Shown piece after piece: positions 27,983 through 44,668 of a stretch of 44,723 nucleotides of DNA. How positions within the stretch are numbered: position 1 is the stretch's first letter; the number at the start of each line of letters is the position of its first letter. This DNA is from an uncultured Verrucomicrobia subdivision 3 bacterium. GTDB taxonomy: Bacteria > Verrucomicrobiota > Verrucomicrobiia > Limisphaerales > UBA11358. The position numbers were made by a program, and so were the translations under genes. The notes beneath the pieces are model-generated. The model was not told the origin of the DNA, made no database searches, and was given only the letters and a program-made list of their open reading frames with translations. The DNA is taken from NCBI GenBank assembly GCA_903888765.1, contig CAISVF010000251.1:1-44723 (forward strand), read 5' to 3'.

Positions 27983-28023
27983 GCGATAAATCGTTTGACC
28001 GCAAACGATTTATCGCTGTTTTT
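27983..28023 (+). terminator. Strong intrinsic terminator after the acyl-CoA synthetase gene
   Basis: A perfect 15-bp stem, GCGATAAATCGTTTG (27983-27997) with its complement at 28002-28016, a 4-nt ACCG loop, then TGTTTTT. It begins 33 bp after the stop codon at 27949. Confidence 0.92.
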
Positions 28024-28148: not shown

Positions 28149-29681
28149 TCATGGCGTGGACGCTTTGCCTACCAAGGTGACTACGCTGAAGGAGGGAACA
28201 GAAAAATCACCACTGAGTTCAACTTCATCCCCGGCTTCGAGGTTTTTTAACGCGGAGGTGGTGTAAGGTATAAAATATTTTTTCATACCTTCGAACAGCG
28301 ATCCGGCTGCGGAGGCAATGCGGACGCTGTGAGATTTGGCGGCCAGATTGACAAAAACAAAAACCAACCGACCGGATTGTGGGTCACAATATGCCGAAGC
28401 CAGCAGGCTGTTGATGTTCTGTGGACCACGCAGTTCGACACGCTGCATTCCCGGGCGGATAAAGCGGCTATAATTGCCAAGCACCCACAGCAGTTTGGAT
28501 TCGTGAATGGTTTCAGCGTCACCCTGGTGCTTGTAATCCGTGTAAATCAATCCGCTTTTGTAATCCTCGTTGGCCACCGCGTTCCACCATTGCCAGGAGG
28601 AGGCGTTAACGAGCGTAAGGTCGTAATGTATAATCCGGGCCATGCGCAGAGCTGTATCCATGCCGAGGTCGCGGCCGGGTTCCATAATGCAATATTCGCT
28701 TTGCCAGATTTTCCAACCGGGATAATTGGCAAAAGCACGCCCTAAATGTTGCCGATGCGGGATTAACTTTGCGACCACATCATCCGACCAGTAACTATGA
28801 TAGGTAATGATACCGCCGAAGCAGGCAGAGAGCGCGGGGTTGTCACAAATAAAATGCAAGTAATCTCCGTAGTCGGCCTTCCACTTATCGTGCGCTGGCA
28901 GATCGAGAGAGTACATGTCCGGAAGGCAACCCGATTCCGGACCGAGGATCAGGGTTGACAACCCCGCCTGCTTCAGCCGGGTTTTGAGCGCCATAAACAC
29001 CTGCTTTAAATCTTCATTCGAGGCGCGACAGCCCTCTTGAGAATGTTGCCAGTCCCATTGCGGTTCGTTGATGGGGAAAATGTAATTAAATTCAATCCGC
29101 TCCGCAGGGTCGGGATTGTCGCGAAAGTGTTGCAAAATATCGGTCAGATATTTAGCAAAATCCTGCTCTGCCCCCGGTTTCAGATTGGTGGTCGATATGG
29201 TATCCTTACCGAGATTGCTCAAGCCATTGCGCGTCAGCCGCAGCGGCGGACTGTAAACCGTGGCGGCAAACTGCCGGACACCAGCGGCTTTGGCGGCGCG
29301 TAAAAACCAGCGGGCACCCGGTTGCCGCGTCCAGTCGTATTGCCCCGCACAGGTTTCAAAGGACTCGACGGTGCGCCAGTCGTCACGAATATTCACGTGA
29401 TTGAGACCGGCCCCCAGATTAAATCTCCAGCAAGAAAGCCCAATGCCCGAGTTAGTGGAAAACAACAGGTTGGCAAGCCTGGTTTTGCCCGCCTCCGACC
29501 ACAATCCGACCTTCTGAATAGACCACGCATCGTTAGCTCCAAAATTGTCCATCACCTGGTGCCGCGTGGATAAATCCAAGGCATATTGCTGCAATCCGCT
29601 GTCCGCTGATGCGGTGGAAATGACCACCGCAACAAGCAGGACCGTCAAACATTTTAGAATATAATTCAAAAATAGAATCAA
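28149..29681 (-). CDS. GH30-family endo-beta-galactanase-like glycosidase
   Basis: A 510-aa secreted enzyme. The start is TTG 29681, overlapping the GH2 stop as TTGA; no ATG gives the signal peptide LNYILKCLTVLLVAVVISTA, so coupled translation from TTG is preferred. The mature start HQVMDNFGANDAWS matches the GH30 fold's first strand. NYIFPINEPQWDW carries the acid/base Glu206 and KIWQSEYCIMEPG the nucleophile Glu329. A C-terminal beta-sandwich ends the protein. The whole is closest in pattern to GH30 endo-beta-1,6-galactanases (subfamily 5-like), which attack arabinogalactan side chains; this specificity is inferred. It is the last gene of the leftward carbohydrate locus, directly after the beta-galactosidase. 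Confidence 0.85.
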   Translation of the reverse strand: MILFLNYILKCLTVLLVAVVISTASADSGLQQYALDLSTRHQVMDNFGANDAWSIQKVGLWSEAGKTRLANLLFSTNSGIGLSCWRFNLGAGLNHVNIRDDWRTVESFETCAGQYDWTRQPGARWFLRAAKAAGVRQFAATVYSPPLRLTRNGLSNLGKDTISTTNLKPGAEQDFAKYLTDILQHFRDNPDPAERIEFNYIFPINEPQWDWQHSQEGCRASNEDLKQVFMALKTRLKQAGLSTLILGPESGCLPDMYSLDLPAHDKWKADYGDYLHFICDNPALSACFGGIITYHSYWSDDVVAKLIPHRQHLGRAFANYPGWKIWQSEYCIMEPGRDLGMDTALRMARIIHYDLTLVNASSWQWWNAVANEDYKSGLIYTDYKHQGDAETIHESKLLWVLGNYSRFIRPGMQRVELRGPQNINSLLASAYCDPQSGRLVFVFVNLAAKSHSVRIASAAGSLFEGMKKYFIPYTTSALKNLEAGDEVELSGDFSVPSFSVVTLVGKASTP

Positions 29682-32377
29682 TGCGTTTTGATTTGCACCT
29701 TCGAAGGCAGAAGCCCATCAGCGGTGGCCGTAAGCTGGATAGATCCGGTGATTCCCGGCTTGCCGCGGACAATCACCAGGGCAAGCCCGTTAAAAGCATT
29801 GCGCTCCGGTGCCTGAAAAGATTCAAAGCTTGTCGGGTCGCCATTATCCGTGGCCACAATTTCACCCGGCCCCTCAATGGCGAAGTGAAGGTGATTTTTT
29901 GATCGTGGAACTTGTCGGCCCCGCTCATCCGCGATGGTAACCGTGACAAACGCCAGATCCTTTCCGTCCGCAGCAATCCGGCTGCGATCAGCCGAGCTTA
30001 ATATTTTGGCCGGCGAGCCGGTGGTTTGCACGCAGTCAGTCGCCCATTTCCGGCCATTTTTGTAAGCGACCACTTTGAGTTCCCCCGGCTGGTAGGTAAC
30101 ATCATCCCAGCGAAGGCGGTATTCGTTTTCTCCTTTCAATTTTTTCCCGAGAGATTTACCGTTTAGAAATAATTCGGCAGCATCTCCTGAAGTGTACACA
30201 AACACCGGGGTTACCAGGCCGACACGCTCCGGCCAATTCCAGTGAGGCAAGATGTGCGCCATCGGCAATTCGGGCCGCCAATGTGCCTGATATAGATAGA
30301 AACGGTCTTTTTTGAACCCCGCCAAGTCCACCACGCCGAAATAGGAACTACGGGAAGGCACACGAATTTTGCCGAGTTCGTCCAACTCCTTCTTAGCCTT
30401 CGCCTTGTCCTCGGGATTGGAGTAATTCAACAAATTGCTCACGTCAGCGTTGTAAGGAGTTGGTTCCCCCAGATAATCAAAACCGGTCCAGACAAATTCG
30501 CCCGCCACGAAAGGATTGCGCTGCTCGCCACGAAACTCCGCATCCGGCAGCGTTGCCCAGCTAGGAACAAAGAAGTCATAAGAACTAACCTGGAAATCCG
30601 CCAGCGCAATCTTGTTGTTTTTGCCCGCGAAGGAATTCGGAACCGGAAAGAAATATTCACCCCGCGAACTGACCGTAGAGGAGGTTTCACTCCCGAAAAG
30701 CGGTATGGCGGCGTTGGTCGCACGAAACTGCCAATAATTGTCCGGGTGATAATTCCAGCCAAACACATCAAAATGTTTGGCAAAATCCTTAAAACCCGCC
30801 TTGTAGGAACTAACCGCCGTCGTACAGGCACGCGTCGGGTCTTCAGAGTGAATGATGGAGCGATGTTGCTCGGCAAGCAGCGGACCGGCATCGCGGTCCT
30901 GATCGGGCACTTCGTTACCACTGCTCCACAGAATGACGCACGGATGATTCCGATCGCGGCGAACCAGAGCGCGCAAGTCCTGTTCATGCCACTCGGAATA
31001 CAAAACATGGTAGTCATTTTTATTTTTACCCGCCGCCCAGCAATCGAAGGCCTCGTCCATAACCACAAAACCCATACGGTCGCACAAATCCAAGAGCTCG
31101 GGTGCCGGCGGATTATGGCTGGTGCGAATCGCATTGACGCCAAACTCGCGCAAAATTTCCAGCTGGCGCTCGAGCGCGCGAAGATTCAAGGCAGCCCCCA
31201 GTGCGCCAAGATCGTGATGGTCGCAGACGCCATTGAGTTTGACATGCTGGCCGTTGAGAAAAAAGCCTTTGTCCACAGTGAATTCAATCGAGCGGATGCC
31301 AAACGGGGTTTCGTAAACGTCAACCGTTTGCCCGCCTTGCTCCACCGTAGTGACCAAGACATAACGCTGCGGTTTTTCCAGACCCCAAATTTTCGGTGAT
31401 TTAACGATGGTCTGGCTTTCACAGGCAGAGCTTTTCTGTGCCTGAATTTTAACGTCACAAACCGTTGTCCGGGCTACACATTTGCCCTTGCGGCCATCCG
31501 ACTTGAGTTCAAAAATCTCGTTTTTTACCGCTACTACAGCATCGCTGGCGTTGGCATTGTCCACATTGACTTGAATTTTTACCGTTGCTGAATTTTTACT
31601 GACCTCTGGGGTCGTGACCGCCGTGCCCCAATGAGCCACACGCAGCGCTGCGGTTTTAACCAGCCAAACATTGCGGTAAATACCGCCTCCTGGATACCAG
31701 CGCGACGATTGCTGCGGATTATCCAACCGAATGGCGATGACGTTGTCGCCGCCAATTTTTATGAACGGAGTCAATTCCACACGCCACGACGCGTAGCCGT
31801 AAGGCCAGCCACCGGCTAAATGACCGTTAACCCATACGCTGGCATAGGACATCGCGCCATCCACATCGAGGAAAATTTTGCGGCCGACATCAGCCGCGGA
31901 TAAATCGAGATGCTTGCGATACCAGGCTACGCCCCACCATGGCAGCTTGGCGGTTTCACCGGGATATTCCTGCTTGAACGGCCCTTCAATCCCCCAGTCG
32001 TGCGGCAGGTTCAGCATTCGCCACTGGCTGTCGTTAAAATCCGGTTGGGCGAAGGATAAGTCGCCCAACGGATTTTCAGGCGGGAGCGACTTCGCGAGCA
32101 AATTGGCGTTAGTCGTGAGTTCCGCCCCGGTTGCTAGCAGCCAATTTTTAATATTGGGATAATTCAGAGCATCGCCCGTGCCGAGGGCATCTCCCCGCGA
32201 AAAACGCCACCCGTCGTTGAGGGAAATCCGTTCGCGCGGTGAATAACCGGCAGCTAGAGCATCTACACTGGCGGTGTTAACAATGGCAGCTAAAGCCAGC
32301 CAAGGCCCACCGAAATCAGCAAATCTGATATTCAGTTTGCAGAATTGAATTATCGAAATAATTTTTGACATATGCAT
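29678..32377 (-). CDS. GH2 beta-galactosidase
   Basis: An 899-aa protein from ATG 32377 (a second ATG lies at 32371), with a probable signal segment within the first 45 residues (PWLALAAIVNTASVDALAAG). The GH2 sugar-binding domain has LPHDWGIEGPFKQEYPGET and WYRKHLDLSAADVGRKIFLD. The TIM barrel has AIRTSHNPPAPELLDLCDRM, acid/base Glu489 in WSSGNEVPDQ and nucleophile Glu564 in LFGSETSSTVSSRGEY. After the barrel come a DUF4982-like domain (ELFLNGKSLGKKLKGENEY) and a C-terminal Ig-like domain found in this beta-galactosidase type. It probably removes terminal galactose from oligosaccharides made by the neighbouring GH30 enzymes. The downstream GH30 gene overlaps by 4 bp and the upstream PATR-GH30 gene is 41 bp away. 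Confidence 0.93.
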   Translation of the reverse strand: MHMSKIISIIQFCKLNIRFADFGGPWLALAAIVNTASVDALAAGYSPRERISLNDGWRFSRGDALGTGDALNYPNIKNWLLATGAELTTNANLLAKSLPPENPLGDLSFAQPDFNDSQWRMLNLPHDWGIEGPFKQEYPGETAKLPWWGVAWYRKHLDLSAADVGRKIFLDVDGAMSYASVWVNGHLAGGWPYGYASWRVELTPFIKIGGDNVIAIRLDNPQQSSRWYPGGGIYRNVWLVKTAALRVAHWGTAVTTPEVSKNSATVKIQVNVDNANASDAVVAVKNEIFELKSDGRKGKCVARTTVCDVKIQAQKSSACESQTIVKSPKIWGLEKPQRYVLVTTVEQGGQTVDVYETPFGIRSIEFTVDKGFFLNGQHVKLNGVCDHHDLGALGAALNLRALERQLEILREFGVNAIRTSHNPPAPELLDLCDRMGFVVMDEAFDCWAAGKNKNDYHVLYSEWHEQDLRALVRRDRNHPCVILWSSGNEVPDQDRDAGPLLAEQHRSIIHSEDPTRACTTAVSSYKAGFKDFAKHFDVFGWNYHPDNYWQFRATNAAIPLFGSETSSTVSSRGEYFFPVPNSFAGKNNKIALADFQVSSYDFFVPSWATLPDAEFRGEQRNPFVAGEFVWTGFDYLGEPTPYNADVSNLLNYSNPEDKAKAKKELDELGKIRVPSRSSYFGVVDLAGFKKDRFYLYQAHWRPELPMAHILPHWNWPERVGLVTPVFVYTSGDAAELFLNGKSLGKKLKGENEYRLRWDDVTYQPGELKVVAYKNGRKWATDCVQTTGSPAKILSSADRSRIAADGKDLAFVTVTIADERGRQVPRSKNHLHFAIEGPGEIVATDNGDPTSFESFQAPERNAFNGLALVIVRGKPGITGSIQLTATADGLLPSKVQIKTH

Positions 32378-32418
32378 AATAGAGATTGTTCGTTTAGCAA
32401 ATTTGGGGGAGATTTTAA

Positions 32419-35400
32419 TTAAGGTCCAATCAAAACACGATAGAATTGACGAGGCGCGTTGATTGCATTGCTGTCAGACCACTGAAACGATAATGCTGCA
32501 GGGTTGGTGGTGAACAAGTTTGTCCAAACCAGCAGATTCGTCGAAGCCATAACCGTATAGTCTGGACCGATGCTTCCATTAACATTGAAGCGAAAGGTTC
32601 TGTTGATCATGCCCGCAGACGACAAGGTGGGAGGCGTCACGGAACGAACAGTGACATTGAAATATTGCGTGGCGCTCAAGCTGGGTGTGCCGTTGTCCGC
32701 AACGACAATCGTAAAAGGATTGATCGTGTGCCCCTGCGAAATCAACGGCCGCCAGTTCAGGATGCCGTTGGAGGCATTCATCACCGCATTGCTGGGTGCA
32801 ACCGGCATAGAATAGGTAAGCATTTGGCCCGGTTGGTTAGCATCGGTGGCCAGGTTCGTGATCAACAAGGTTTGTCCGGGGTTGATAAACCGGTCCGAGG
32901 CCGGATAGGTGAACTTGGGCGGCGAGTTCGAGTAAACGCCGGTGTTAATCAAAACCGTGGTGAGGGAATAAGGAGCCAGCGTGAGAGTGCGATCGCCCGA
33001 CAGGCTCGCTCCCGCCAGATTTTCCGTGAGCGTGAGGCGCTGTTGCGCCGCGCCGTCGTTCGCAGTTTTGTAAACCTGCCAGGCGCGTTGTTGCGGATCA
33101 TCGGCCCAGTAGTTGGCGGCTGGGATCACGGAATAACTGTAATTGCTGCGCGTATTGATGATCACCAGAATCAACTTGTCACTGACCTGAGGAATGCTGT
33201 TGGTGTGACGGTAAAGGGAGACAAGAACATCCGGATCGCTGCTGGTCACCTGCGCCCGGCAGTCGCCGGGGTTTATGAACTTGCTGTAGTGCCCCAAGGA
33301 GCAGAAGGAGTCGCTTGTCGTCGTCAGGGAGAGACCCCACATGATGTAGCTATTGGCCTGTTCGAGCGTGAGGACATTGTGTATGGGAAGACACTGCATC
33401 ATCCAGCCGGGAATATTTGTTCCGTAGCTGTCGTCGCCAAAAAACTCGGTCATGTAAATCGTGTTCGTCGGATACGCCGCGCGCAGGCCGGACAAACTGC
33501 CGGTAACGTGACCGACATCGTTGACCGAGCCTTGATAGGGATGATGCGCGATGGCCGTGAGGCTGCCGGCGGGAAGATTGTTCAGATAGCTCGAAATTGT
33601 GCTTGGATTGCCGGTCGTGGTGTCGGGGCCGATGAATTTCACAAAGCCAAAGCCGTTGGTCTGGAAAGTATTTTTGACCGCCGCGAGCGCCTGCGGATAG
33701 CCGGCCTTGGTGCTCGACTCGGTGCCGGACAGATAACATCCAGCCTGCCAAGCGGCGTAAAACGTCCCGCTGGGGGTGAAGTCGCACTCGTTTTGAATCG
33801 AGATAAAATCAGGAATGGCCTGCGTGACCGTGAGCGTCGAGTTATCGCGCAAATACTGGAGCGAACGCAGCCACCAGGCGGCGTAATCCGCATACCGGTA
33901 GCCCGAGTTCGTTTTCGCAAGCGTTCCGCCCTGAGCGCTGCCGGCGCTCTTGTAGCGCCCCGGCGGCGACCAGGATGCCATGGTGATCAAGCCATTGGGT
34001 TGAATCGCCCGATACAGTTTAATGAACTGGACGTTGTCCGAATCCCACCCCGACCAGAAAATACTCGGCTCATCCAACGCGCACTCGAAGGAGTTCGCCA
34101 GCCTGACAAACGAGAGGTTCAGATTCGTCGGGGCGAAGGCGAGGTTGAATTGCGAGCCGTTCCAGGCGATGTTCTGCGGACCCAGGCAGAAATTCGCCCC
34201 GATGCCGTGGATTTGCTGGTAGGTGGTGACGGGATTCAGCGTGATGGTGCTGATGGTAGATCCTTCCGGCGCACTTAGATCGCGGACTTGGATGGCATTC
34301 AGCTGCGCGGAATTCCCCCCGACCGGCAGCACGCCGGCCAAGGTGAAGGTCTGATTGGTGGCATTGGCCGTGAAGGTGCCGATGGTATATTGGCCAACGC
34401 CACCGTTGGTGCCGGTGCTGTTGTAGTCGAGCGTGACCGTGTTGCCTCCGCTGCTGGTCACGGTCTCGGTGCGGTTGGACGCCAGCGAACGATTGTCGTT
34501 GACCCAGATTTGAACCAGATACGGGTGGCCGGCCATGAGATTTTTCAAAGTCACCGTCTGGGTTCCGTTGTTCGCGGTGTAAGCACCGCCTTTGAGCGCA
34601 GTCTGATAGGTGGAACTCAAGCCGCTCCAAGGACTGCCTGTGCCGCTGCCAAATGCCGTCGCACTAAAGGAAGTATTTCCGCTCATGCCCACATTGGAGC
34701 CAAAAGCACTTTGGCTATTGCCGGCGGCGAAAGACACCCCATTGACCGACGTGGCAGTGTTCGCGTCATTGAAGGCGTATAACAGGCCGCCATTGGTAAT
34801 CACGTCGCTTTCGTCAGCAATCGTGGCCGGCGCCCCCCAGAGAATGTTGGAACTGGCAATGCCCGCCTGAACTGAAATCGAGCCGTTCGTCAGCAATTGG
34901 GTAGTGTTCCAAACCAGGCCGACATTCAGCGGCGGCAGGATCGTATAGGTGAAAGCTCCATTATAGTTGGAGGCATTGAAGAGAGTGAACGCATCCCCCG
35001 CCTGCAAAGTTGGCCCCTCGTTGATCACTGACATTCCCCCGCCATAAGTCAGCGTCGTCACGCCCGTCACACGGCTGGCTTTTTGGGCATTGGTTCGATT
35101 CAGAGTCATCACAGTGGTGCCGGCGAGCGTCAACGCATTGCTGAAAGACAAAGTCGAAATATCTGCGCCGCCGAGTCCGGGCTGAAGGGATCCTCCATAC
35201 AAAACCGTGACGGCTCCAGCAATGGCGCCATTCCCGGCAAGCGTCTGGCCGGTGGAAACCAGCCAACCACCAGAAACCGCAGAGACATCCAGAGTTGCTC
35301 CCGCCAAAATATTGATGGATGAGCTGTTGGCAATGGATCCATTGGCACTCAAGGTTACCGTGCCATTGCTGATCGTGGTGACCCCTGTGTAGGTATTGGT

Positions 35401-36705
35401 GCCGGCAAGCGTCAGCGCGCCCATGCCGAGTTTGGTCAAGCCGCCGCCGGTGGACGTGGCATCCTCAACCAACGGCGGTGTAATGGTGATGGCATAACCG
35501 CCGACATCAATCACCGCGTCGCCCGCAAGCACTTTCAAGCTGGAGGCATTCGTCAGGAAAGTCGGATTACTCGCGCCGGCCCTGAGCGTGCCACCGTTGA
35601 AGTTCACATTGAATGTCACGCTGCCCTTCGCAAAGTTGGTTACGGTGAGCGTGCCGCCATTAAGAGTCAATGTGCCGCTCGCGCTGCCGCCGCCCGTGCC
35701 GAACTGCGTGAAGCCGGAGCAGTTCACCGCGCCGCCGTTGAGCATGAGCCCGGAACCAACGCTGTTGCCGCTGCCAACGTTGATGCTCGTGACATTGAGC
35801 ATGGAGCCGTAATCCACGACCAGCGTGCCGCGGTTGGCTTGAAAGGCGCCGAGCGTAACCGTGCCGCTATTGGTAAGCTCGAGGTTGTTGACGCCGTCCT
35901 TGATGAAATTATAGCCGCCGCCAGAGATCGCCCCAGTAAGCAGGATGAAGCCTGCGCCGACTCGCGTCTGCCGACCGAGAGTGATGGGGCCGGTGTAAAC
36001 CGAAGTTGAGGAGGCGGAATTGTAGAACGCACCCACATCGAAGCCGTTCGCCGTGCTGTTCAATGTTAGCGAAGGATTGGCAGTTGGCGAAATGCCACCG
36101 AGATCGAGAATGCCAGAACCGCTTACAACGAGGCTGGAGGCGTTGTTCACGCCATCGCCCAGAACACTTGTCGAACCCAATTTCAAAATTCCGGCGCTAA
36201 CGGTGAGCGCGCCGGTGTTGATGCTCGCGCCGGAGACGACAAGCGTGCCGGAGCCGGCTTTGGTGATGCCGGCTGAACCGGCCAGCGCCGCGCTGATGGT
36301 TCCGACCTTGCCGCTGCCGAGTGCATTGACCGTGATGGTCGGCGTGCCGCCGGCCAGTGTCAGAACGTTGGCGCTGGAGCCGTTGTTATCGAGTAGCCAA
36401 CCGGCGGCGGAGGTGGTGTTGGTGTCGCCGAAAATCAGGTTGCCGATGGTCCGCGCAGAGTCGAGATGCACCACGGTCGGGTCGGTGGCGATGTTGACGG
36501 AATTGAAATCCGCCGTGAAGCCGAAGCTGTCGGCGACGATGCTGTTGCTCCAGTTGGCCGCCGCGCCCCAGTTGCCGCCGCTGGTCGTGTTTGTCCAGAT
36601 GCCGCTGGCGGCATGCAAAATCGGCGCGACCAGCATCGCAGCAACTCCGAGGCAGCGAACAATTCGTCGTACGATATTATTAGTTGGATACTTTTGAAAA
36701 TCCAT
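32419..36705 (-). CDS. PATR beta-helix protein fused to a GH30 glycosidase
   Basis: A 1428-aa secreted protein with signal peptide (RIVRCLGVAAMLVAPILHAA). Residues about 35-615 are an autotransporter-associated beta-strand repeat passenger, predicted beta-helix, with units such as KLGMGALTLAGTNTYTGVTT. A beta-sandwich of unknown type follows (about 617-815, ILWGAPATIADESDVITNGG). A GH30 domain (about 820-1255) has acid/base Glu973 in SIQNECDFTPSG, HHPYQG, and nucleophile Glu1087 in IYMTEFFGDD. Then come a putative Ig domain (PPKFTYPASDRFINPGQTLL) and a C-terminal module ending QFYRVLIGP, a tail I associate with verrucomicrobial secreted proteins. No outer-membrane beta-barrel is present, so despite the family name it is not a type V autotransporter. 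It is likely surface-bound or secreted; substrate inferred as galactan or xylan-like polymer. Confidence 0.88.
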   Translation of the reverse strand: MDFQKYPTNNIVRRIVRCLGVAAMLVAPILHAASGIWTNTTSGGNWGAAANWSNSIVADSFGFTADFNSVNIATDPTVVHLDSARTIGNLIFGDTNTTSAAGWLLDNNGSSANVLTLAGGTPTITVNALGSGKVGTISAALAGSAGITKAGSGTLVVSGASINTGALTVSAGILKLGSTSVLGDGVNNASSLVVSGSGILDLGGISPTANPSLTLNSTANGFDVGAFYNSASSTSVYTGPITLGRQTRVGAGFILLTGAISGGGYNFIKDGVNNLELTNSGTVTLGAFQANRGTLVVDYGSMLNVTSINVGSGNSVGSGLMLNGGAVNCSGFTQFGTGGGSASGTLTLNGGTLTVTNFAKGSVTFNVNFNGGTLRAGASNPTFLTNASSLKVLAGDAVIDVGGYAITITPPLVEDATSTGGGLTKLGMGALTLAGTNTYTGVTTISNGTVTLSANGSIANSSSINILAGATLDVSAVSGGWLVSTGQTLAGNGAIAGAVTVLYGGSLQPGLGGADISTLSFSNALTLAGTTVMTLNRTNAQKASRVTGVTTLTYGGGMSVINEGPTLQAGDAFTLFNASNYNGAFTYTILPPLNVGLVWNTTQLLTNGSISVQAGIASSNILWGAPATIADESDVITNGGLLYAFNDANTATSVNGVSFAAGNSQSAFGSNVGMSGNTSFSATAFGSGTGSPWSGLSSTYQTALKGGAYTANNGTQTVTLKNLMAGHPYLVQIWVNDNRSLASNRTETVTSSGGNTVTLDYNSTGTNGGVGQYTIGTFTANATNQTFTLAGVLPVGGNSAQLNAIQVRDLSAPEGSTISTITLNPVTTYQQIHGIGANFCLGPQNIAWNGSQFNLAFAPTNLNLSFVRLANSFECALDEPSIFWSGWDSDNVQFIKLYRAIQPNGLITMASWSPPGRYKSAGSAQGGTLAKTNSGYRYADYAAWWLRSLQYLRDNSTLTVTQAIPDFISIQNECDFTPSGTFYAAWQAGCYLSGTESSTKAGYPQALAAVKNTFQTNGFGFVKFIGPDTTTGNPSTISSYLNNLPAGSLTAIAHHPYQGSVNDVGHVTGSLSGLRAAYPTNTIYMTEFFGDDSYGTNIPGWMMQCLPIHNVLTLEQANSYIMWGLSLTTTSDSFCSLGHYSKFINPGDCRAQVTSSDPDVLVSLYRHTNSIPQVSDKLILVIINTRSNYSYSVIPAANYWADDPQQRAWQVYKTANDGAAQQRLTLTENLAGASLSGDRTLTLAPYSLTTVLINTGVYSNSPPKFTYPASDRFINPGQTLLITNLATDANQPGQMLTYSMPVAPSNAVMNASNGILNWRPLISQGHTINPFTIVVADNGTPSLSATQYFNVTVRSVTPPTLSSAGMINRTFRFNVNGSIGPDYTVMASTNLLVWTNLFTTNPAALSFQWSDSNAINAPRQFYRVLIGP

Positions 36706-36749
36706 TCGTTAAATGAACTATCGCGCATCAAACAGTCGCTGGCAAAGGC

Positions 36750-37529
36750 TCACCAGTAACCGGGAATGGACTTGCGCGTGGTGGTGTGCCCGTCCAGAAA
36801 AAGATAATTTCGCACATTGCCGTGAAGGACCTTGGGCGGAAGCTGATTATACCAGCCCGGTTGGTTCGGTGAATTTGCATAAGCCCGTTGATCCGTGTCC
36901 GCCAAGGCAAAGACATCGGTCAACGGACGGACAGCAGAAATCTCGTTCAGTTTTCTCGGTCGAAGCCGCGTTCCGTAGCTGGGTTGATAACCAAAAATCG
37001 GCCACGTCATTGGCGGCACACCCAGTCCCCAGACATCCGAGCCGCCCTTGCCATCGGAAGTTCCCGCACCAGGCACCGTGTATAAAATCTGCGTGGCGAC
37101 AACATTCAAACTTGCATTGGGAGTCCAGTTGGCAAATCCGGGGCAGATAAAAACCTTTGAGTAACGCAAGGTGTTGTCCGGTGACTGGCCGAGATAGCCC
37201 GCAAGATAATAAATCAGCATCGAGTTGTAACTCCCACCAGACGAGCCGGGGGCGCAATATTGAAACTGCGCTTGCTGACCCGTCCACAAACCGTATTCAC
37301 CACCGCTGTCGGTGCCTCCACAGAGTTTGTCGCCGTTGTCGTTGAGATACATGTTCAACCCGACGCTGGCCTGGTGAAAGTTGGAAAGGTAGCCAATTTT
37401 GTATGCCTTTTGCTTGGCGGACGACAGCGCCGGCAGGAGCATGGCCGCGAGAATGGCGATGATGGCGATGACGACCAATAGTTCAATCAAAGTGAAACCG
37501 GTTCTGTTTGATCGTTGAATAATTTTCAC
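36750..37529 (-). CDS. Type II secretion-like pseudopilin (verrucomicrobial H-x9-DG type)
   Basis: A 259-aa protein from GTG 37529. The N-terminus has the prepilin-peptidase site and hydrophobic stalk [20 protein letters not shown], with cleavage expected between Gly and Phe and the conserved Glu at +5. After the stalk comes [20 protein letters not shown], as in GspG/H-like pseudopilins, then a globular domain with Cys and Gly-rich loops. The end carries [20 protein letters not shown], the H-x9-DG motif of a large family in Planctomycetes, Verrucomicrobia and Lentisphaerae. No secretion-machinery genes are in this window. Its place between the two PATR genes suggests it serves their export or forms a fibre with them (inference). 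A hairpin precedes it. Confidence 0.93.
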
Positions 37530-37548
37530 AGTTCAATAATTGAAAGGA

Positions 37549-37573
37549 GAGCCGGTCAACCCATAACCGGCTC
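37549..37573 (-). other. Intercistronic stem-loop before the pseudopilin gene
   Basis: GAGCCGGT (37549-37556) pairs perfectly with ACCGGCTC (37566-37573) around a 9-nt loop. Read leftward it follows the upstream PATR stop by 40 bp and is followed by TCTCCTTTC and the GTG start about 20 nt later. There are too few T residues for a strong terminator; an mRNA-processing, stability or partial-termination element is more likely. Confidence 0.55.
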
Positions 37574-37613
37574 CCCCCAAACGTCATCCAATCCCATTGG
37601 TGACAAATTCAAA

Positions 37614-40600
37614 TCAAGGCTTCTGCAAACGGTAAAACACATTCGTCTGCGCCGGATTCATGTTGATGACCAGGCTGGTGCCGTTCTGTGAGCCGGGAAT
37701 GTTGAACCAGAAGTTCGCATCCGCCAGATTCACCGAATTGGACTGCGCATACCAACCCAGGTGCGTGCCCGGCCAGGTCAGCGTTAGCGTGCTGCCGCTG
37801 ACACTGGCAGTGATGTTAGTCGGATAATTTGCAATGGTGGAAACCACCAGCAGGCTGCCTGAACCGGTAATGAATGGCGCGGCGGTGGTGCTGTCATACA
37901 AGCCGGGAGCCTGATTTATGCCGCCCAGAACAAGGCTGCCAACTTGGTTCGTAACGGCTGAGTCCAGTTGCAGGAACGCGCCGCTTGCCACAGACACGGT
38001 CGAATTTGTCGCGAGGGTGGGCAGAGCGATCTGCAACGTGCCGCCGTTGACGGTGGTGTTGCCGGTGTAGTTGTTGGTGCCGGATAGAACCTGGGTGCCG
38101 CTGCCATTTAAGGTCAATGACAGGTTGCCTCCTACCGCTCCCGCAAACGTGGTGGTGCTGGTCAGATTCAACGTCAAGGTGCTCTGCGTCATCGCGCTGT
38201 TCGTCAGCGTGGCATTTGGACCCGTTCCGGACAATCCGGTAAACTCCTGGTTGAAACCATTCAAATCGAACGCGGTTGGAGACGCGGTGCCAACCGTAAG
38301 TGCGGCGGCAGGGCAAGCGCCGTTGTTGGCACCAATGGAAGTCCTGCCTTCAGCAACCGACAAGATTGCGTAGTCGCCACCACCGGAGAATCGCACCCGC
38401 CCGTTGCGAGCGCTGACCGAGCCGCCGATGTTCGTCACCGCGCCATTGATGTTCAGCCAGTTGGTGCCGCCAATCGGGCCAGTAAACAGGCCACCGCGCT
38501 GAATCGTCCTGGGCGAAAGCGTGACCGGTCCGGAAACCGTCGCCCCGTTCGTATCCGTCCCACCTCCGGAACCGCTCGTGCCGCCGTAGCCGTAAGCGCC
38601 CGCATCCGTTTCAATCAATCCCTGGAAGAATGAAGCCCCAGCGACCACCGTGATGGAGTTCGAAATGTTCACGCCGTTTTTCAGAAACAACTGTGAGTAA
38701 GCCCCGCCTCCGATCGCCAAGTTGTCAATCACCACCGGCCCGGTACCGAGCGCGTTGTTGTTTCCGACATAGACCGCACCGAGGTTGATGATCAGTCCGC
38801 CGCTGAAACTGTTCGAGCCGGTCAAGGTGACCGCGTTCACATTGGTCTTCACCAACGCGCCGCCGCCTGTAAATGTTCCCGCCGGTGTATGGACCGTTGC
38901 AATGTCATAAATCAGCGATGCACCCGTGCCGATGTTGGCAGCGACCGACGCCGGAGCGCCCAACGCGCTGACCGATGCCACACGCACAGCCCCCGTGTTG
39001 ATGAGTGTTCCGCCCGCGAACGAATTTCCGCCACTGATATTCAGCGTGCCCGCTCCGCTCTTCACGAGTTGACCTGAACCACTGATGCCATTGACCAGAT
39101 CAAGATCCCACGGGTTGGCAACCGCCAGTGTCGCGTTGTTGGTGATGTCGCCGGAAATCTGGCCGTTGTTCACGACACCGTCGCCGAGTTGCAACTTGCC
39201 CGCGCTGACCAACGTGCCGCCGGAATAATTGTTCGTCTCGGTGAAGGTTAATGAGCCGGAACCGTTTTTAATCAACGCGGTCGGGCCTGTGATGAATCCA
39301 CCGCTGCCGCTGGCGAACACATAGTCGTTGGTGCTATTGACCACAATGCTGGCGGGCGAAACGGTTTGCGCCAGGTTCACCGAAGCGTTGGTGGCAGGCA
39401 CATTCGAGAACAACACGCTGTCCGACTGATAGAAAGTGTCACTGCTCATACCCTTCAGCCAGTTAGCCGTGGTCTGCACATCCCAAGCGTTGACGTTTTG
39501 CCCGCCTTGCCACGCGAGAGTTGCGGCGGTTCCCGGCAGAGTGGAAACTACGAGTAGCAATTGGTTCGGCGACGCGCTCGTATCGTAAACCAGCGACATG
39601 GATTGCCGACCGGGTTGATGGCTCAACACAAAATTTCCCGCGCTGCCCGCGAGTGAATTAGTCGCCTGCAGCAACACATAAGTGCCGATCGGAAACCCAT
39701 TCGTGAGCGGCCAGTTGGCCAGATTGATAGTGGTGACACCGCTGGGATTCACTGTGCCTGCCACGAGGATTAGGTCGTTGCTGCCGCCGTTGCTGAAATC
39801 AAAACTCAACGTGTCGTTACCGACAAGGGTGAGGTCGTTGGCAAAATTCAGCGTGCCGATGCTGCCGCTGCCGCCGGGCGAAATCTGCGCGTTGGCCACG
39901 TCCGTGGCATTGCCTATCACCGTGCCGTAGCCGGACAAAACTTGATTCGCGGCGATGGCGAATGTGGAACTCAAGCCCGTTACATCCAGAGTGGTGCCTG
40001 CCGCCAATGAGATGTTGCCGGAGTTGGCGATTGAACCGGTTCCGCTCAAGGCAAGCGTGCCGTTGGTCACGACCGAGGCACCAGTGAAGGTATTTGCACC
40101 CGTCAGCGTCAACGTGCCGACACCGCGCTTGATAAGACCGCCGCCCGGCGATGCACCATCCGCCACGAGCGAAGTGCCGATGGTGATGGCGTTGCCGCCG
40201 TCATCAATGATGGCGTTGCCGGCCTGAACTTTCGCCGAAGTCGCGGTCGGCAAAAATGCCGTCTGGCTCGCGGCAGCGATGAGCGTAGCTCCGTTGAAGT
40301 TGATGTTAAAAGTGACCCCGCCCTTCGCGAGATTAGTCACGGTGAGCGAGCCGCTGTTGAGCGTGAGCGAGCCGCTGGCCGTGCCACCGCCCGTGCCAAA
40401 CCGTGTATTGCCCAAGTTCGTCACGGAACCGCCGGCCAGCGTCAATCCCGCACCAACACTGGTGCCAGAGCCGATGTTCATATTGGTCACAGTGACGAAT
40501 GTGCCGGCTTCCACCTGCAACGTGCCACGGTTTCCGGTCAAGGTTCCCAGCGCCACCGCGCCGTTGTTTCTGAATTGTAAAGTGCCGGTGCTGTCCTTGA

Positions 40601-42050
40601 TCACATTGTTCGTGTTGCCGTTGATGGTGTTGGTGAAAAGCATAACTCCCACACCGCCAAAGCGAGTTTGCCGCAGCAGGGTCACCGTCCCGCCAATAAT
40701 GTTGGTTGTCGAGGCCGTGTTGTTTTCGATGGCACCGACGTCAAATCCGTTGGCGGTGCTGTCCATGGTCAGCGGCACATTCACCAAGGGAGTGATCGCC
40801 GCAAAGTCGAGAATGCCAGAACCAGCGATGATCAATCCCGCCGTGTTGTTGACGCCATCGCCAAGTGCGCGAGCGTTGCCGAGCTTGAGCGTGCCAGCCA
40901 GGTTCGTCGTGTAGCCGGTGTAAGTATTCGTTCCAGAGAGCGTCAAGGTTGACGCACCGACCTTGACTAAATTCTGTGCGCCGCCAATCTGACCGATGGG
41001 GCCGGTGGTGTTACCGCCGCCCGAAACAGAACCGACATTGCCATCACCCGTTCCGGTGACCGGGCCAGCTAAAGTGATCGGGCCAGCCCAGGTAGCGCCG
41101 GAATCCAGACGAAGCTGTCCATTTGCCTCGCCGGTGTCACCGCCGTAGAGCGTGACTGCCCCTCGATTGGTGACGATGCCGCTGACGTAAAGCGCGGCAT
41201 TGGGAAGAATGTTAACCGTAGTTCCACTTCCCAACGGACTGAAGATCGCCGCCTTACCGGCTGCGGCTGCGGCCACCTCGCCAGTCAATCCGTTGGTGCC
41301 AATATTGATTGTCCCATTAAAGCCGGAGAAGTTGGCGTTGGTGATGGTGGTAATGATGGTGGAGCCGGAGCCAGTGCCCAGCGCAACATTGATTATCCCG
41401 CTGCCGTTGAGCGTGTTATTCGTAAGACCGTTGTAAGTCACCGGGCCAGCGTTGAGGTTGAGCGTGCCGCCGATTGTATTGGTCGCCGTCACGCCGAACG
41501 CACCGAGTGCGCCAGCATTCGTCGCCGTCAGCGTGCCTGCGCTCAAGTTGAAGCCCGCAATGAAAGAATTGGCGTTGGTGAGAATCAAACTTCCGGTTCC
41601 GGCCTTAACCCAACGCGTGGAACCGGCCATGACCGGCCCCACAATGACGTTTGCTCCGGCGCCGAGCGCGTTGATCGCGATGGTCGGAGCGCCGCCCGCG
41701 AGCGTGAGGATGTTCGCGGCGGTGTTGTTGTTGTCGAGAATCCAGCCCGCAGCCGAGGAAGTCGTCGTGTCACCAAAAGTCAGGTTGCCAATGGTGCGCG
41801 CGGAATCCAGATGCACCACAGTCGGATCGGTGGTGATGTTGATGGAATTAAAATCGGCGGTGAAACCGGACGCGTCGGCAATCGCGCCGCCGCTCCAGTT
41901 TGCCGGCGCGCTCCAAAGGCCGCCGGTGAGAAGGTTTGTCCAGGTGCCGTTGGCAGCCGAAGCGGCAAATGGGGCCAGCACTGACATTGCCGCAATGACC
42001 GCGTTCAACAAATGAATTCGTATGCAGCGGTCTGATGAGGATATTTTCAT
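37614..42050 (-). CDS. Giant PATR (autotransporter-associated beta-strand repeat) protein
   Basis: A 1478-aa secreted protein with signal peptide (LNAVIAAMSVLAPFAASAAN). Nearly the whole mature part is repeat-rich beta structure. At least six PATR units fit the G-x-G-x-L-x-x-x-G-x-N-x-Y/F-x-G pattern, for example VGASTLTLSGTNTYTGYTT, RGVGTLTLTGANTFTGASV, NGSGSLTFTETNNYSGGTL, SGAGTLNISGGNSFAGGTL and NGSGTQVLSGTNNYTGNTT. The end is a C-terminal module (TLTWPGTHLGWYAQSNSVNL) finishing NVFYRLQKP. There is no beta-barrel translocator and no catalytic domain. The first 600 residues are collinear with the passenger of the PATR-GH30 fusion, so the two are paralogues. It is probably a surface or extracellular adhesin or scaffold. 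It is the first gene of the leftward locus. Confidence 0.88.
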   Translation of the reverse strand: MKISSSDRCIRIHLLNAVIAAMSVLAPFAASAANGTWTNLLTGGLWSAPANWSGGAIADASGFTADFNSINITTDPTVVHLDSARTIGNLTFGDTTTSSAAGWILDNNNTAANILTLAGGAPTIAINALGAGANVIVGPVMAGSTRWVKAGTGSLILTNANSFIAGFNLSAGTLTATNAGALGAFGVTATNTIGGTLNLNAGPVTYNGLTNNTLNGSGIINVALGTGSGSTIITTITNANFSGFNGTINIGTNGLTGEVAAAAAGKAAIFSPLGSGTTVNILPNAALYVSGIVTNRGAVTLYGGDTGEANGQLRLDSGATWAGPITLAGPVTGTGDGNVGSVSGGGNTTGPIGQIGGAQNLVKVGASTLTLSGTNTYTGYTTNLAGTLKLGNARALGDGVNNTAGLIIAGSGILDFAAITPLVNVPLTMDSTANGFDVGAIENNTASTTNIIGGTVTLLRQTRFGGVGVMLFTNTINGNTNNVIKDSTGTLQFRNNGAVALGTLTGNRGTLQVEAGTFVTVTNMNIGSGTSVGAGLTLAGGSVTNLGNTRFGTGGGTASGSLTLNSGSLTVTNLAKGGVTFNINFNGATLIAAASQTAFLPTATSAKVQAGNAIIDDGGNAITIGTSLVADGASPGGGLIKRGVGTLTLTGANTFTGASVVTNGTLALSGTGSIANSGNISLAAGTTLDVTGLSSTFAIAANQVLSGYGTVIGNATDVANAQISPGGSGSIGTLNFANDLTLVGNDTLSFDFSNGGSNDLILVAGTVNPSGVTTINLANWPLTNGFPIGTYVLLQATNSLAGSAGNFVLSHQPGRQSMSLVYDTSASPNQLLLVVSTLPGTAATLAWQGGQNVNAWDVQTTANWLKGMSSDTFYQSDSVLFSNVPATNASVNLAQTVSPASIVVNSTNDYVFASGSGGFITGPTALIKNGSGSLTFTETNNYSGGTLVSAGKLQLGDGVVNNGQISGDITNNATLAVANPWDLDLVNGISGSGQLVKSGAGTLNISGGNSFAGGTLINTGAVRVASVSALGAPASVAANIGTGASLIYDIATVHTPAGTFTGGGALVKTNVNAVTLTGSNSFSGGLIINLGAVYVGNNNALGTGPVVIDNLAIGGGAYSQLFLKNGVNISNSITVVAGASFFQGLIETDAGAYGYGGTSGSGGGTDTNGATVSGPVTLSPRTIQRGGLFTGPIGGTNWLNINGAVTNIGGSVSARNGRVRFSGGGDYAILSVAEGRTSIGANNGACPAAALTVGTASPTAFDLNGFNQEFTGLSGTGPNATLTNSAMTQSTLTLNLTSTTTFAGAVGGNLSLTLNGSGTQVLSGTNNYTGNTTVNGGTLQIALPTLATNSTVSVASGAFLQLDSAVTNQVGSLVLGGINQAPGLYDSTTAAPFITGSGSLLVVSTIANYPTNITASVSGSTLTLTWPGTHLGWYAQSNSVNLADANFWFNIPGSQNGTSLVINMNPAQTNVFYRLQKP

Positions 42051-42262: not shown

Positions 42263-44668
42263 ATGGCTCTGACAATGACCGGCAACACTTCCCCGATTTT
42301 GATGGGATACCAAAGCCGCATAGTTCCATGGGCCATCTGCCTGGGTCTGCTGCTTGCCAGTTTGGGCGGATTTGGAGCCTCACCAGAAATAATTAAGGAT
42401 TCAGGGGCGGGTTCTCAACCACCGGCAATCGTCCATAATCTGGCCCAAGTGCGACAACTTTCGACGGTGTTAGGCGAGACCAACCTGATGGTTGACCTTA
42501 CCGGAGTAGTTGGAGGTATATTTCCCGAACTGTCACTGGTGGTCTTGCACGATGACACCGGCAACGCCGGAATCAAAATGGATTTGCAACGTTTTCCGTT
42601 TCTAAAAAAACAGCAACTCATTCGCATTGAGGGACAGGGGCATTTTGGAAACGGGGAAGCTTCCTTGCTGCCATTGGAAATAATTGACAATGACGGAGCG
42701 CATAATGCCCAAGAAGTTACCGGACATTTGTATTTAACGAAAGGGTTGCATCCGCTCTGCCTGAGCTATTTTCAAGCTGTACGACAACAAGCACTGCTAG
42801 TGGAATATGAGGGACCAGACACCATCCTGATGCCGCTGCCCGAGGCGAAGCTTTTTCATGTGGCCAATCCCACTGAGGCTGAACCACACTATGAGCAAGG
42901 GCTGGATTGTGATTATTATGAGGGATTTTGGGATGGCGTGCCGGATTTCAGGCAACTGGAACCAGTCAAATCAGGGATCACACGGAATATCAGCCTGGAA
43001 ACACGGCAGCGGGACGAATACTACGCCCTTTCCTTCACGGGACTGCTGGAAATTCAAAAATCAGGAACCTACGTCTTTCATGTGACCTCCGATGACGGCA
43101 GCCGCCTGTTCGTGCAGGAAACTCCGACTTCGGTGAAAATTTTATCCGAAAACCAGGGAATTCAAAGTGACCCGCCCAAACAACTCCATCCCGGCCAAGC
43201 ATTCCCTTTGAGTGATGATTATTCTTGGGGGGTCTGCGAAGGTAAGCTCGGTTTTGTAGGGAGCACTGGCAAAGGGTGGAATTTGGAAATCAATTCCGAT
43301 GGCAACCAAATAAAGGTACTCCTCAATAATGCAGCAAGCCTGCCGCCCGGGATGGTTAATAATTGCCTGATCCGCGCCACGGGTTTTTGCAAGGCAGTCC
43401 TTGCGGAACATGACCAACGGATTCCGGGCGTAATCATGGTAAGCAGCACCAACGACCTCTCCCTGCTAAAGGCTAAGCCAGACGCAAAAGATTTCCAAGC
43501 CGGCACCACCATCATGCTGCCACTTCTGACTTCTGCCGAACAAATCCGGCAATTGAAACCGGAAGAGGCGGCTCGGGCTTATCCGGTAGTTCTGCGCGGG
43601 ATCATTACCGCCCGCGAAACGCTGCCGGAAGGCATTATTCAAGACCTTACCTCCGCCGTTTATGTGCAATTTGATTTTCCGAAAGGCCGGCAAATATCCG
43701 CTGGAAATTATTGTGAACTGACCGGGGTGACCGCCCCCGGAGGCTACGCCACCATGGTAATCGCCAGTCAGGTTGCCATTCTGGGACCAGGACAATTCCC
43801 CACGCCTTTGCATCCCGACTTTGCACAAATGCTCGGTGGCAGCATGGATTGTCAATGGGTTGAGTTGCAGGGCATGCTTAGCCATTTTGATGGCAGTTTG
43901 CGAGAAGCTCAGCTGGTCGTCAAAGGGGGAACAGTCAGAACTTTCTTTCTGATCAACTCTGACCTGAATTTTATGGCGACCTTGCCCGGCGCTTTTGTGC
44001 GCATTCGAGGTTGTGTGGTGCCTGCACGAAGCGCATCCGGCAACCCCGCCCGCGAGGCTTGTCTGTGGGTCCCCTCCGTCTCCTGTATCGCCATGGATCA
44101 ACCTCCTCCCGCCGCTCCCTTTAATGTGCCTTTACAACAAATCTCCGAATTTTCGAAGTTTGATCCGAACCCAAACTATTACCAAACCACCAAAGTGCGC
44201 GGTCAGATCCTCCACTTGGCGGATAAATTGGTTTATTTCACTGATGGTAAGGACGTAATGCGTATATTGCCTAAAAACCTTCCCAAACTTGCCGTGGGAG
44301 ACTTAGTTGAGGCCGTTGGCCTGCCGGAAGTGGGGTTTCCCACGCCCACGCTGATCGAAGCCTCGTTGAGAAAAGTCGGACAGACCAACCTGCTCTCCCC
44401 TCCGTTGGTCGATTTTGAACAGGTTCTGCAAGCCAAATACGACGCGCATCGGGTGCGAATTGAAGGTAGGCTGATCGAAATCCGGACCACGGTCAATCAA
44501 ATGGAATTGTTTCTTCAATCCGGCTTGCGGAACCTCCGGGCAGTGGCCTCCGCACATTTCCAGGAAAGCGATATCCCTTTGTTGAACCCAGCCGCTGCGC
44601 GGCGGACCTGGCGGCGGGGTGGCGTTCCTTTTGCGTGCACCGGTTCGGGTGGTGATTCAGTTTTTTAA
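42263..44668 (+). CDS. PA14/OB-fold secreted sensor-like protein, probably truncated
   Basis: An 801-aa protein with a signal or anchor segment (RIVPWAICLGLLLASLGGFG); ATG 42302 is an alternative start. A first OB-fold-like region (about 50-150) is followed by a PA14 domain (about 205-300, LEIQKSGTYVFHVTSDDGSR), then several OB-fold-like modules, as in EEAARAYPVVLRGIITARE with YVQFDF and CQWVELQGMLSHFDG. This order matches the N-terminal half of large verrucomicrobial hybrid sensor kinases, which continue with a membrane helix, HisKA and HATPase. Here the frame stops at 44668 with no kinase after AARRTWRRGGVPFACTGSGG, and the end is unlike the family. A frameshift or insertion is likely. It is divergent from the PATR locus and may once have sensed its polysaccharide (inference). 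Confidence 0.7.
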   Translation: MALTMTGNTSPILMGYQSRIVPWAICLGLLLASLGGFGASPEIIKDSGAGSQPPAIVHNLAQVRQLSTVLGETNLMVDLTGVVGGIFPELSLVVLHDDTGNAGIKMDLQRFPFLKKQQLIRIEGQGHFGNGEASLLPLEIIDNDGAHNAQEVTGHLYLTKGLHPLCLSYFQAVRQQALLVEYEGPDTILMPLPEAKLFHVANPTEAEPHYEQGLDCDYYEGFWDGVPDFRQLEPVKSGITRNISLETRQRDEYYALSFTGLLEIQKSGTYVFHVTSDDGSRLFVQETPTSVKILSENQGIQSDPPKQLHPGQAFPLSDDYSWGVCEGKLGFVGSTGKGWNLEINSDGNQIKVLLNNAASLPPGMVNNCLIRATGFCKAVLAEHDQRIPGVIMVSSTNDLSLLKAKPDAKDFQAGTTIMLPLLTSAEQIRQLKPEEAARAYPVVLRGIITARETLPEGIIQDLTSAVYVQFDFPKGRQISAGNYCELTGVTAPGGYATMVIASQVAILGPGQFPTPLHPDFAQMLGGSMDCQWVELQGMLSHFDGSLREAQLVVKGGTVRTFFLINSDLNFMATLPGAFVRIRGCVVPARSASGNPAREACLWVPSVSCIAMDQPPPAAPFNVPLQQISEFSKFDPNPNYYQTTKVRGQILHLADKLVYFTDGKDVMRILPKNLPKLAVGDLVEAVGLPEVGFPTPTLIEASLRKVGQTNLLSPPLVDFEQVLQAKYDAHRVRIEGRLIEIRTTVNQMELFLQSGLRNLRAVASAHFQESDIPLLNPAAARRTWRRGGVPFACTGSGGDSVF

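What the first reader, a model, noticed from the sequence alone, without database searches (positions are those of the whole stretch)
28149..42050. Five-gene polysaccharide locus combining giant PATR proteins, a pseudopilin and GH30/GH2 enzymes without SusC/SusD
Sequence: five same-strand genes with gaps of 84, 44 and 41 bp and one 4-bp overlap. They encode a 1478-aa PATR protein, a pseudopilin, a PATR-GH30 fusion, a GH2 beta-galactosidase and a GH30 enzyme. Family knowledge: GH30 endo-galactanases and GH2 beta-galactosidases act together on beta-galactans. Inference: this is a polysaccharide-use locus in which capture is done by beta-helix scaffolds and a pilin-like fibre instead of a SusCD complex.
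Basis: partly seen in the sequence, partly recalled or inferred. Interest (0 to 1): 0.75.

Follow-up and report, generated by a model that had tools for sequence, protein, structure and literature searches.

The report
Giant surface proteins with private pseudopilin
A predicted sugar-polymer-digesting gene cluster in an uncultured Verrucomicrobiota bacterium pairs very large secreted proteins with a small pilus-like protein, a pairing seen again elsewhere in the genome and in relatives, which hints at how such giant proteins may reach the cell surface.

Summary
The five same-strand genes, their sizes, gaps and 4-bp overlap are real. The same kinds of genes (PATR giant, pseudopilin, GH30 giant) lie together in three same-genus genomes; PATR giant then pseudopilin is kept in two, while in the third the pseudopilin comes first. 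Enzymes are swapped (GH2 here; GH78 or GH29 there). "Without SusC/SusD" is not specific: no TonB plug is detected in this genome or in 21 of 35 same-genus genomes. No autotransporter barrel was found; a type II secretion (T2SS) operon is present.

CTD genes are followed by a same-strand pseudopilin far more often than chance (17 vs 0.6 expected here, partly circular; 18 vs 0.7 in two related genomes).

Best reading: an export-plus-digestion cassette, CTD giants exported probably by T2SS with a dedicated pseudopilin. A capture fibre replacing SusCD is not excluded but has no direct support; a galactan substrate is unproven. Against: phylum-wide, pseudopilins mostly occur without this CTD, CTD and pilin heads do not co-diverge within the genome, and other pairs sit beside mixed, often non-sugar genes.

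The parts
37614..42050 (-). PATR giant, 1478 aa, Sec-type N-terminus (by eye), 6 PATR stretches, ends in the CTD
   Evidence: relatives 51% identical over 805 columns in G012 and 47% over 750 in G014
37617..37856 (-). C-terminal domain (CTD) of the PATR giant, last ~80 aa, ends FYRLQKP; FN3-like model
   Evidence: no NCBIfam match for the isolated tail at E 1; no Pfam match but PATR in the whole protein at E 0.01
36750..37529 (-). H-X9-DG-type pseudopilin, 259 aa, GTG start; N-methyl helix plus ~200-aa head
   Evidence: H236, D246, H248 invariant in 89 rows; pLDDT 94.9
32419..36705 (-). PATR-GH30 fusion, 1428 aa: PATR region 1-613, ~200-aa module 614-812, GH30 ~815-1245, C-terminal region with CTD
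   Evidence: domain limits read from match boundaries
32422..32661 (-). CTD of the PATR-GH30 protein, ends FYRVLIGP
29678..32377 (-). GH2 enzyme, 899 aa, GalB-type beta-galactosidase, no CTD seen
28149..29681 (-). GH30 enzyme, 510 aa (PF14587), TTG start overlapping the GH2 stop, no CTD seen
   Evidence: 65% identical over 495 columns to the GH30 of the G014 locus
27983..28016 (.). 15-pair hairpin between the convergent genes, possible terminator closing the operon
   Evidence: consensus match only
42263..44668 (+). Divergent 801-aa protein with PA14 domain; resembles the N-terminal part of a putative histidine kinase of a relative; reaches the contig end, likely truncated

Best explanation
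The locus is an operon-like export-and-digestion cassette for a complex plant or algal glycan. The two PATR giants enter the periplasm by Sec, fold as beta-helix rods, and are exported and kept at the surface by way of their FN3-like CTD, most likely through the genome's T2SS. The co-encoded pseudopilin is built into the pseudopilus while the cassette is on and adapts the shared machine to these bulky cargoes. The PATR-GH30 then cuts polymer at the surface; GH2 and the second GH30, which lack the CTD, trim oligosaccharides in the periplasm or outside. Shown: gene order, domains, recurrence of CTD-gene/pseudopilin pairs, presence of T2SS genes, no TonB plug or autotransporter barrel detected. 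Inferred: T2SS export, pseudopilin adaptor role, surface display, substrate.
Confidence: 0.42

Rival explanations
1. One reading: beta-helix giants plus a pilin-like fibre capture the polysaccharide at the surface and replace a SusCD complex.
Against: No glycan-binding domain was recognised in the window's pilin or PATR giant; the plug is missing in much of the genus anyway; other pairs lie beside mixed, often non-sugar genes; T2SS genes are available.
Confidence: 0.2
2. Ordinary CAZyme cluster: the pseudopilin belongs to a heavily duplicated phylum-wide family that often sits in sugar-regulated operons, with no specific tie to its neighbours; PATR giants are general surface or biofilm proteins.
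For: 83 PF07963 matches at E 0.01 and at least 58 PATR frames in this genome; phylum-wide neighbours of pseudopilins are very mixed, the commonest upstream family being Peripla_BP_3 regulators in 6 of 42; CTD upstream of only 5 of 94 pilins there, the window's own included; neighbours of own pairs are mixed; no within-genome co-divergence.
Against: Same-strand adjacency in three genomes far exceeds chance; 10 of 33 pairs have the same nearest neighbour by CTD and by pilin head, 9 of these across species.
Confidence: 0.28
3. The pseudopilin is a signalling or tip subunit that senses the cargo or the glycan and feeds the regulator next door, rather than moving cargo.
For: A putative sensor gene lies beside the locus here (42263-44668), a histidine kinase near it in G033 (HisKA_3/HATPase_c), and an ECF sigma factor plus protein kinase in G014; GntR-type (5 of 42) and LacI-type (2 of 42) regulators beside other pseudopilins.
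Against: Regulators of different kinds at each locus fit simple substrate sensing; no signalling domain was recognised in the pilin.
Confidence: 0.1

Closest known systems
Alginate cluster of Verruconatronum alginivorum with PulG-like pseudopilin (PMC13274419, passages seen)
   Same: A pseudopilin gene (pgaptmp_000050, 67 homologues in that genome) inside a cluster of polysaccharide-degrading enzymes reported as up-regulated on alginate; T2SS export suggested
   Different: The passages seen mention no PATR giants, no CTD and no pairing rule; that organism has TonB-type transporters
Bacteroidota SusCD polysaccharide utilization loci
   Same: Co-directional CAZyme genes with a nearby putative sensor gene
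   Different: No SusC-type TonB plug detected in the genome; giants and pseudopilin instead
Type V autotransporters with PATR repeats
   Same: PATR/TIGR02601 beta-strand repeats and Sec-type N-terminus (by eye)
   Different: No C-terminal barrel detected in the proteins or the genome; FN3-like CTD instead
T2SS cargo with Fn3 secretion domain (PelI/Pel3, PMC7949064)
   Same: Fn3 fold beside a beta-helix glycan-active protein, with T2SS available
   Different: There the Fn3 domain is N-terminal on a small lyase (a private pseudopilin is not mentioned in what I read); likeness here is by predicted fold only
H-X9-DG / DUF1559-type pseudopilins of the Planctomycetes-Verrucomicrobia group (family naming recalled; some hit names say H-X9-DG)
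   Same: N-methyl helix, H-X9-DG C-terminal motif
   Different: Here part of a repeated giant-pseudopilin pair

Membership tests
SusCD-type polysaccharide utilization locus | SusC-like TonB-dependent transporter | tested here: not met
   0 PF07715 matches in own genome at E 0.001; genome 92.86% complete
SusCD-type polysaccharide utilization locus | SusD-like glycan-binding lipoprotein | not tested
   none of the five proteins matched one in Pfam; no genome search made
SusCD-type polysaccharide utilization locus | Co-directional CAZyme genes | tested here: met
Type V autotransporter | PATR / autotransporter beta-strand repeats | tested here: met
Type V autotransporter | C-terminal Autotransporter barrel PF03797 | tested here: not met
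T2SS/T4P pseudopilin, H-X9-DG type | Prepilin N-methylation motif | tested here: met
   PF07963 36.6 bits over cut-off 21.2
T2SS/T4P pseudopilin, H-X9-DG type | C-terminal H-X9-DG motif | tested here: met
   [12 protein letters not shown] read from the sequence; H236 and D246 invariant in 89 rows; the NCBIfam scans did not list an H-X9-DG model
T2SS/T4P pseudopilin, H-X9-DG type | T2SS core genes in the genome | tested here: met
   GspD N0/Secretin_N, T2SSE, T2SSF, T2SSG on C393
T2SS/T4P pseudopilin, H-X9-DG type | Assembles into a pseudopilus or moves cargo | not testable with these tools
   needs experiment
T2SS cargo with Fn3 secretion domain | Fn3 fold of the domain | tested here: inconclusive
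GH2 beta-galactosidase GalB | Curated model score over cut-off | tested here: met
   NF041463 1184.8 vs 900 bits
GH30 (PF14587) for 28149-29681 | Pfam gathering score | tested here: met
   255.2 vs 27 bits
GH30 for the domain of 32419-36705 | Pfam or NCBIfam cut-off | tested here: not met
   only sub-cut-off NF052681 33 bits; 9ywn xylanase E 4e-29 by phmmer, with both candidate catalytic Glu aligned as read by eye

The most novel reading that the evidence does not exclude
A plug-in secretion scheme: many giant surface protein genes carry an FN3-like C-terminal export or anchoring domain and bring their own pseudopilin, which is swapped into a shared T2SS machine so that locus-specific cargo is exported when the locus is induced. 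This would explain why this lineage keeps dozens of pseudopilins and how barrel-less PATR giants reach the surface.
Probability: 0.28. Interest if true: 0.85.

Novelty: new variant of a known kind. Interest (0 to 1): 0.6.

Why it matters
Verrucomicrobiota genomes hold many polysaccharide-degrading genes (recalled, and seen in the loci here), and this lineage has few or no TonB plugs but dozens of pseudopilins of unknown purpose. A repeatable genetic unit (CTD gene followed by pseudopilin) gives a direct, testable handle on both puzzles, and points to a C-terminal domain that the Pfam and NCBIfam scans made here did not recognise.

Tried and rejected

Led nowhere: the Akkermansia paper PMC10540074 (passages) mentions autotransporters only in general; PMC6388578 has none of the searched terms. 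Terminator-like sites in the region are not above chance in number (14 found, shuffle mean 19.0). Ten literature searches of the open library listed no paper whose title or abstract start describes the CTD or the PATR-pseudopilin pair; most subscription papers are not held there.

Biases to keep in mind: A1 (the CTD model, 38 rows) holds 23 rows from loci chosen around pseudopilins and 2 from the window, so the own-genome count and its score ranking (12 of the top 25 paired) are partly circular. G012/G033 supply three of its rows, none of them among the 18 pairs. Expected values assume uniform placement, which understates clustering in operons; the opposite-strand count of 0 is a second control. 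The binomial P of 1.5e-15 assumes 4500 genes. In one search the regex found 59 non-core pilin ORFs in the fetched loci, where one search leaves 71 after I set aside 12 in three secretion-type clusters. For G012/G033 only the 150 listed CTD matches of 209 were used. PATR frames (58) come from the 150 scored of 316 candidates.
Full report
OBSERVATION. The five ORFs are present as described: PATR giant 37614-42050, pseudopilin 36750-37529, PATR-GH30 32419-36705, GH2 29678-32377, GH30 28149-29681, all on the minus strand, with gaps of 84, 44 and 41 bp and a TTGA start-stop overlap. A 15-pair hairpin lies between the convergent genes at 27983-28016. Upstream and divergent is an 801-aa PA14 protein that resembles, at 31% identity over 361 columns, part of a 1136-aa protein of a relative, and at 27% over 341 columns a protein with HisKA_3 and HATPase_c domains in the G033 locus. 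It reaches the contig end and is probably cut. The window is a whole contig of a 5.4-Mb draft genome in 621 contigs, 92.86% complete.

DOMAINS. The GH2 is a GalB-type beta-galactosidase by a curated cut-off. The 510-aa GH30 passes Pfam PF14587; its best solved relative is a conserved exported protein, 3clw, followed by GH30 enzymes named mostly as xylanases. The GH30 part of the 1428-aa protein is under all family cut-offs seen, but matches a glucuronoarabinoxylan xylanase, 9ywn, at E 4e-29. The two PATR proteins are related to each other (49% identity over 446 columns) and sit on either side of the pseudopilin; by the boundaries of matches the second looks like a PATR scaffold joined to a ~200-aa module, a GH30 and a C-terminal region.

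CONSERVATION. A search of 59 genomes (own plus 58 relatives) with the PATR-GH30 protein and inspection of loci gave three same-genus counterparts. G014: ECF sigma factor and protein kinase on the other strand, then a PATR giant of 2250 aa with CTD, two pseudopilins, an 829-aa CTD protein 53% identical to residues 615-1428 of the PATR-GH30, a DUF6055/laminin-G protein, a PATR protein with the GH30 part, a GH30 of 525 aa (65% identical to the window's) and a GH78-type rhamnosidase. G012: a PATR protein cut by the stretch, pseudopilin, a PATR giant of 1651 aa (51% identical to the window's PATR giant), a CTD protein with the GH30 part, and further downstream a GH29-type fucosidase; the stretch between holds two plus-strand ORFs that I did not identify. 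G033: the pseudopilin comes first, followed by a PATR-type giant (relatedness to the window's is only 39% over 380 columns for the part fetched), a PATR-GH30, two GH29 and a histidine kinase gene. So the members are kept together in all three, the order giant then pseudopilin in G014 and G012 only, and the accessory enzymes change.

SUSCD AND SECRETION CONTEXT. No TonB plug was found in this genome. Among own plus 35 same-genus genomes, 22 of 36 have none and the others one to four; SusD was not searched. No autotransporter barrel was found in the genome. A T2SS operon with D-, E-, F- and G-type genes lies on contig C393; C507 carries a further secretin-type and E-type gene and C168 further E- and F-type genes.

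THE RECURRENT PAIR. Both PATR proteins end in the same kind of ~75-residue tail with an invariant R and near-invariant N, W and F (38 rows). A profile of it finds 127 matches in the genome at E 0.01 or better (150 of 227 candidates scored). Of 58 distinct PATR frames among the 150 listed PATR matches, 37 carry the tail. Of 83 N-methyl matches I set aside 12 in three secretion-type clusters. Among the remaining 71, there are 17 cases of a pilin beginning within 700 bp downstream of a CTD on the same strand, against 0.58 expected for uniform placement. In fetched sequence, 17 of 44 non-core pilins with a close same-strand upstream neighbour have a CTD gene there, and 8 of 44 with a downstream neighbour have one downstream. 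Because 23 of 38 rows of the CTD profile came from loci chosen around pilins, the fairer test is in G012 and G033: 18 pairs among 150 listed CTD matches (of 209) and 141 pilins, 0.71 expected, none on the opposite strand. Not all paired proteins are PATR giants: 9 of 16 other own paired CTD proteins match PATR, and their listed sizes, some cut by contig ends, run from 327 to 2034 aa.

LIMITS OF THE PAIR. The 32 co-directional neighbours of those 16 pairs are mixed: sulfatase in 3, alpha-L-fucosidase and alpha-amylase in 1 each, but also argininosuccinate synthase, thymidylate synthase, dehydroquinase and other housekeeping families (25 of 42 families shown). The pair is thus a surface-protein unit not tied to sugar loci alone. 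In 79 phylum-wide loci around related pseudopilins plus the window, the CTD is upstream of 5 of 94 pilins, one being the window's own, against 3 of 723 other genes. Neighbours there are mixed too, with Peripla_BP_3 regulators in 6 of 42 upstream genes. In a sample of 145 genomes of the phylum, own included, the CTD is found in 28 and N-methyl proteins in 139. So pseudopilins occur mostly without this CTD, and the CTD cannot be their general signal. Distances of CTDs and pilin heads correlate weakly over 33 pairs (r 0.19, p 0.0014) and not within the genome (14 pairs, r 0.06, p 0.29); 10 of 33 pairs share the same nearest neighbour on both sides, 9 of them across species. Some pairs thus persist across species, but co-divergence inside the genome is not seen.

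INTERPRETATION. I think it most likely that the operon makes surface-displayed, T2SS-exported giants with a dedicated pseudopilin, plus enzymes that finish the products. Precedent: in V. alginivorum two clusters appear up-regulated as operons on alginate; the PulG-like pseudopilin pgaptmp_000050 (67 homologues) falls in the first, 14 of 17 over-expressed genes are in the clusters (whether 000050 is one of the 14 is not said in the passages), one of the other three encodes a pseudopilin, and the authors suggest T2SS export of the alginases (PMC13274419, passages). What I did not find in print is the repeated pairing of CTD genes with pseudopilins, and the CTD itself (searches listed under Tried and rejected). 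A capture fibre, an ordinary cluster with a promiscuous pseudopilin, or a sensing role remain open.

VERDICT. Real locus with conserved membership; capture-instead-of-SusCD partly supported at best; the wider pattern is the interesting part. New variant of a known kind, interest 0.6.

Noticed in passing
window 42263-44668: PA14-containing putative sensor protein whose 3' part seems lost at the contig end; by eye its last ~20 residues look out of frame or chimeric.
   Followed up: partly
window 25190-27949: ADP-forming acyl-CoA synthetase-type domains fused to a GNAT acetyltransferase (ATP-grasp_5, Succ_CoA_lig, Acetyltransf_3), the layout recalled for Pat-type protein acetyltransferases.
   Followed up: no
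window 5-2734: A second protein with a GH2-type sugar-binding domain (only PF02837, 42.8 bits) running off the other end of the contig.
   Followed up: no
own genome, contigs C168 (L038) and C507 (L041): Two further secretion-type clusters with their own ATPase genes; C168 carries at least three pilin genes in a row with similar N-termini.
   Followed up: partly
phylum sample, handles G067, G069, G083, G147 (families f38, f43): Genomes with 208 to 300 first-look N-methyl candidates (52 scored each) and no CTD match at E 0.001: extreme pseudopilin expansion by another route.
   Followed up: no
L124, L138, L149 (Lentisphaeria-type or untitled records, one Victivallis vadensis): Repeated order of a ~340-460-aa gene, pseudopilin, then an ~830-1350-aa gene, with GntR/LacI-type regulators among upstream neighbours in this set.
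   Followed up: partly
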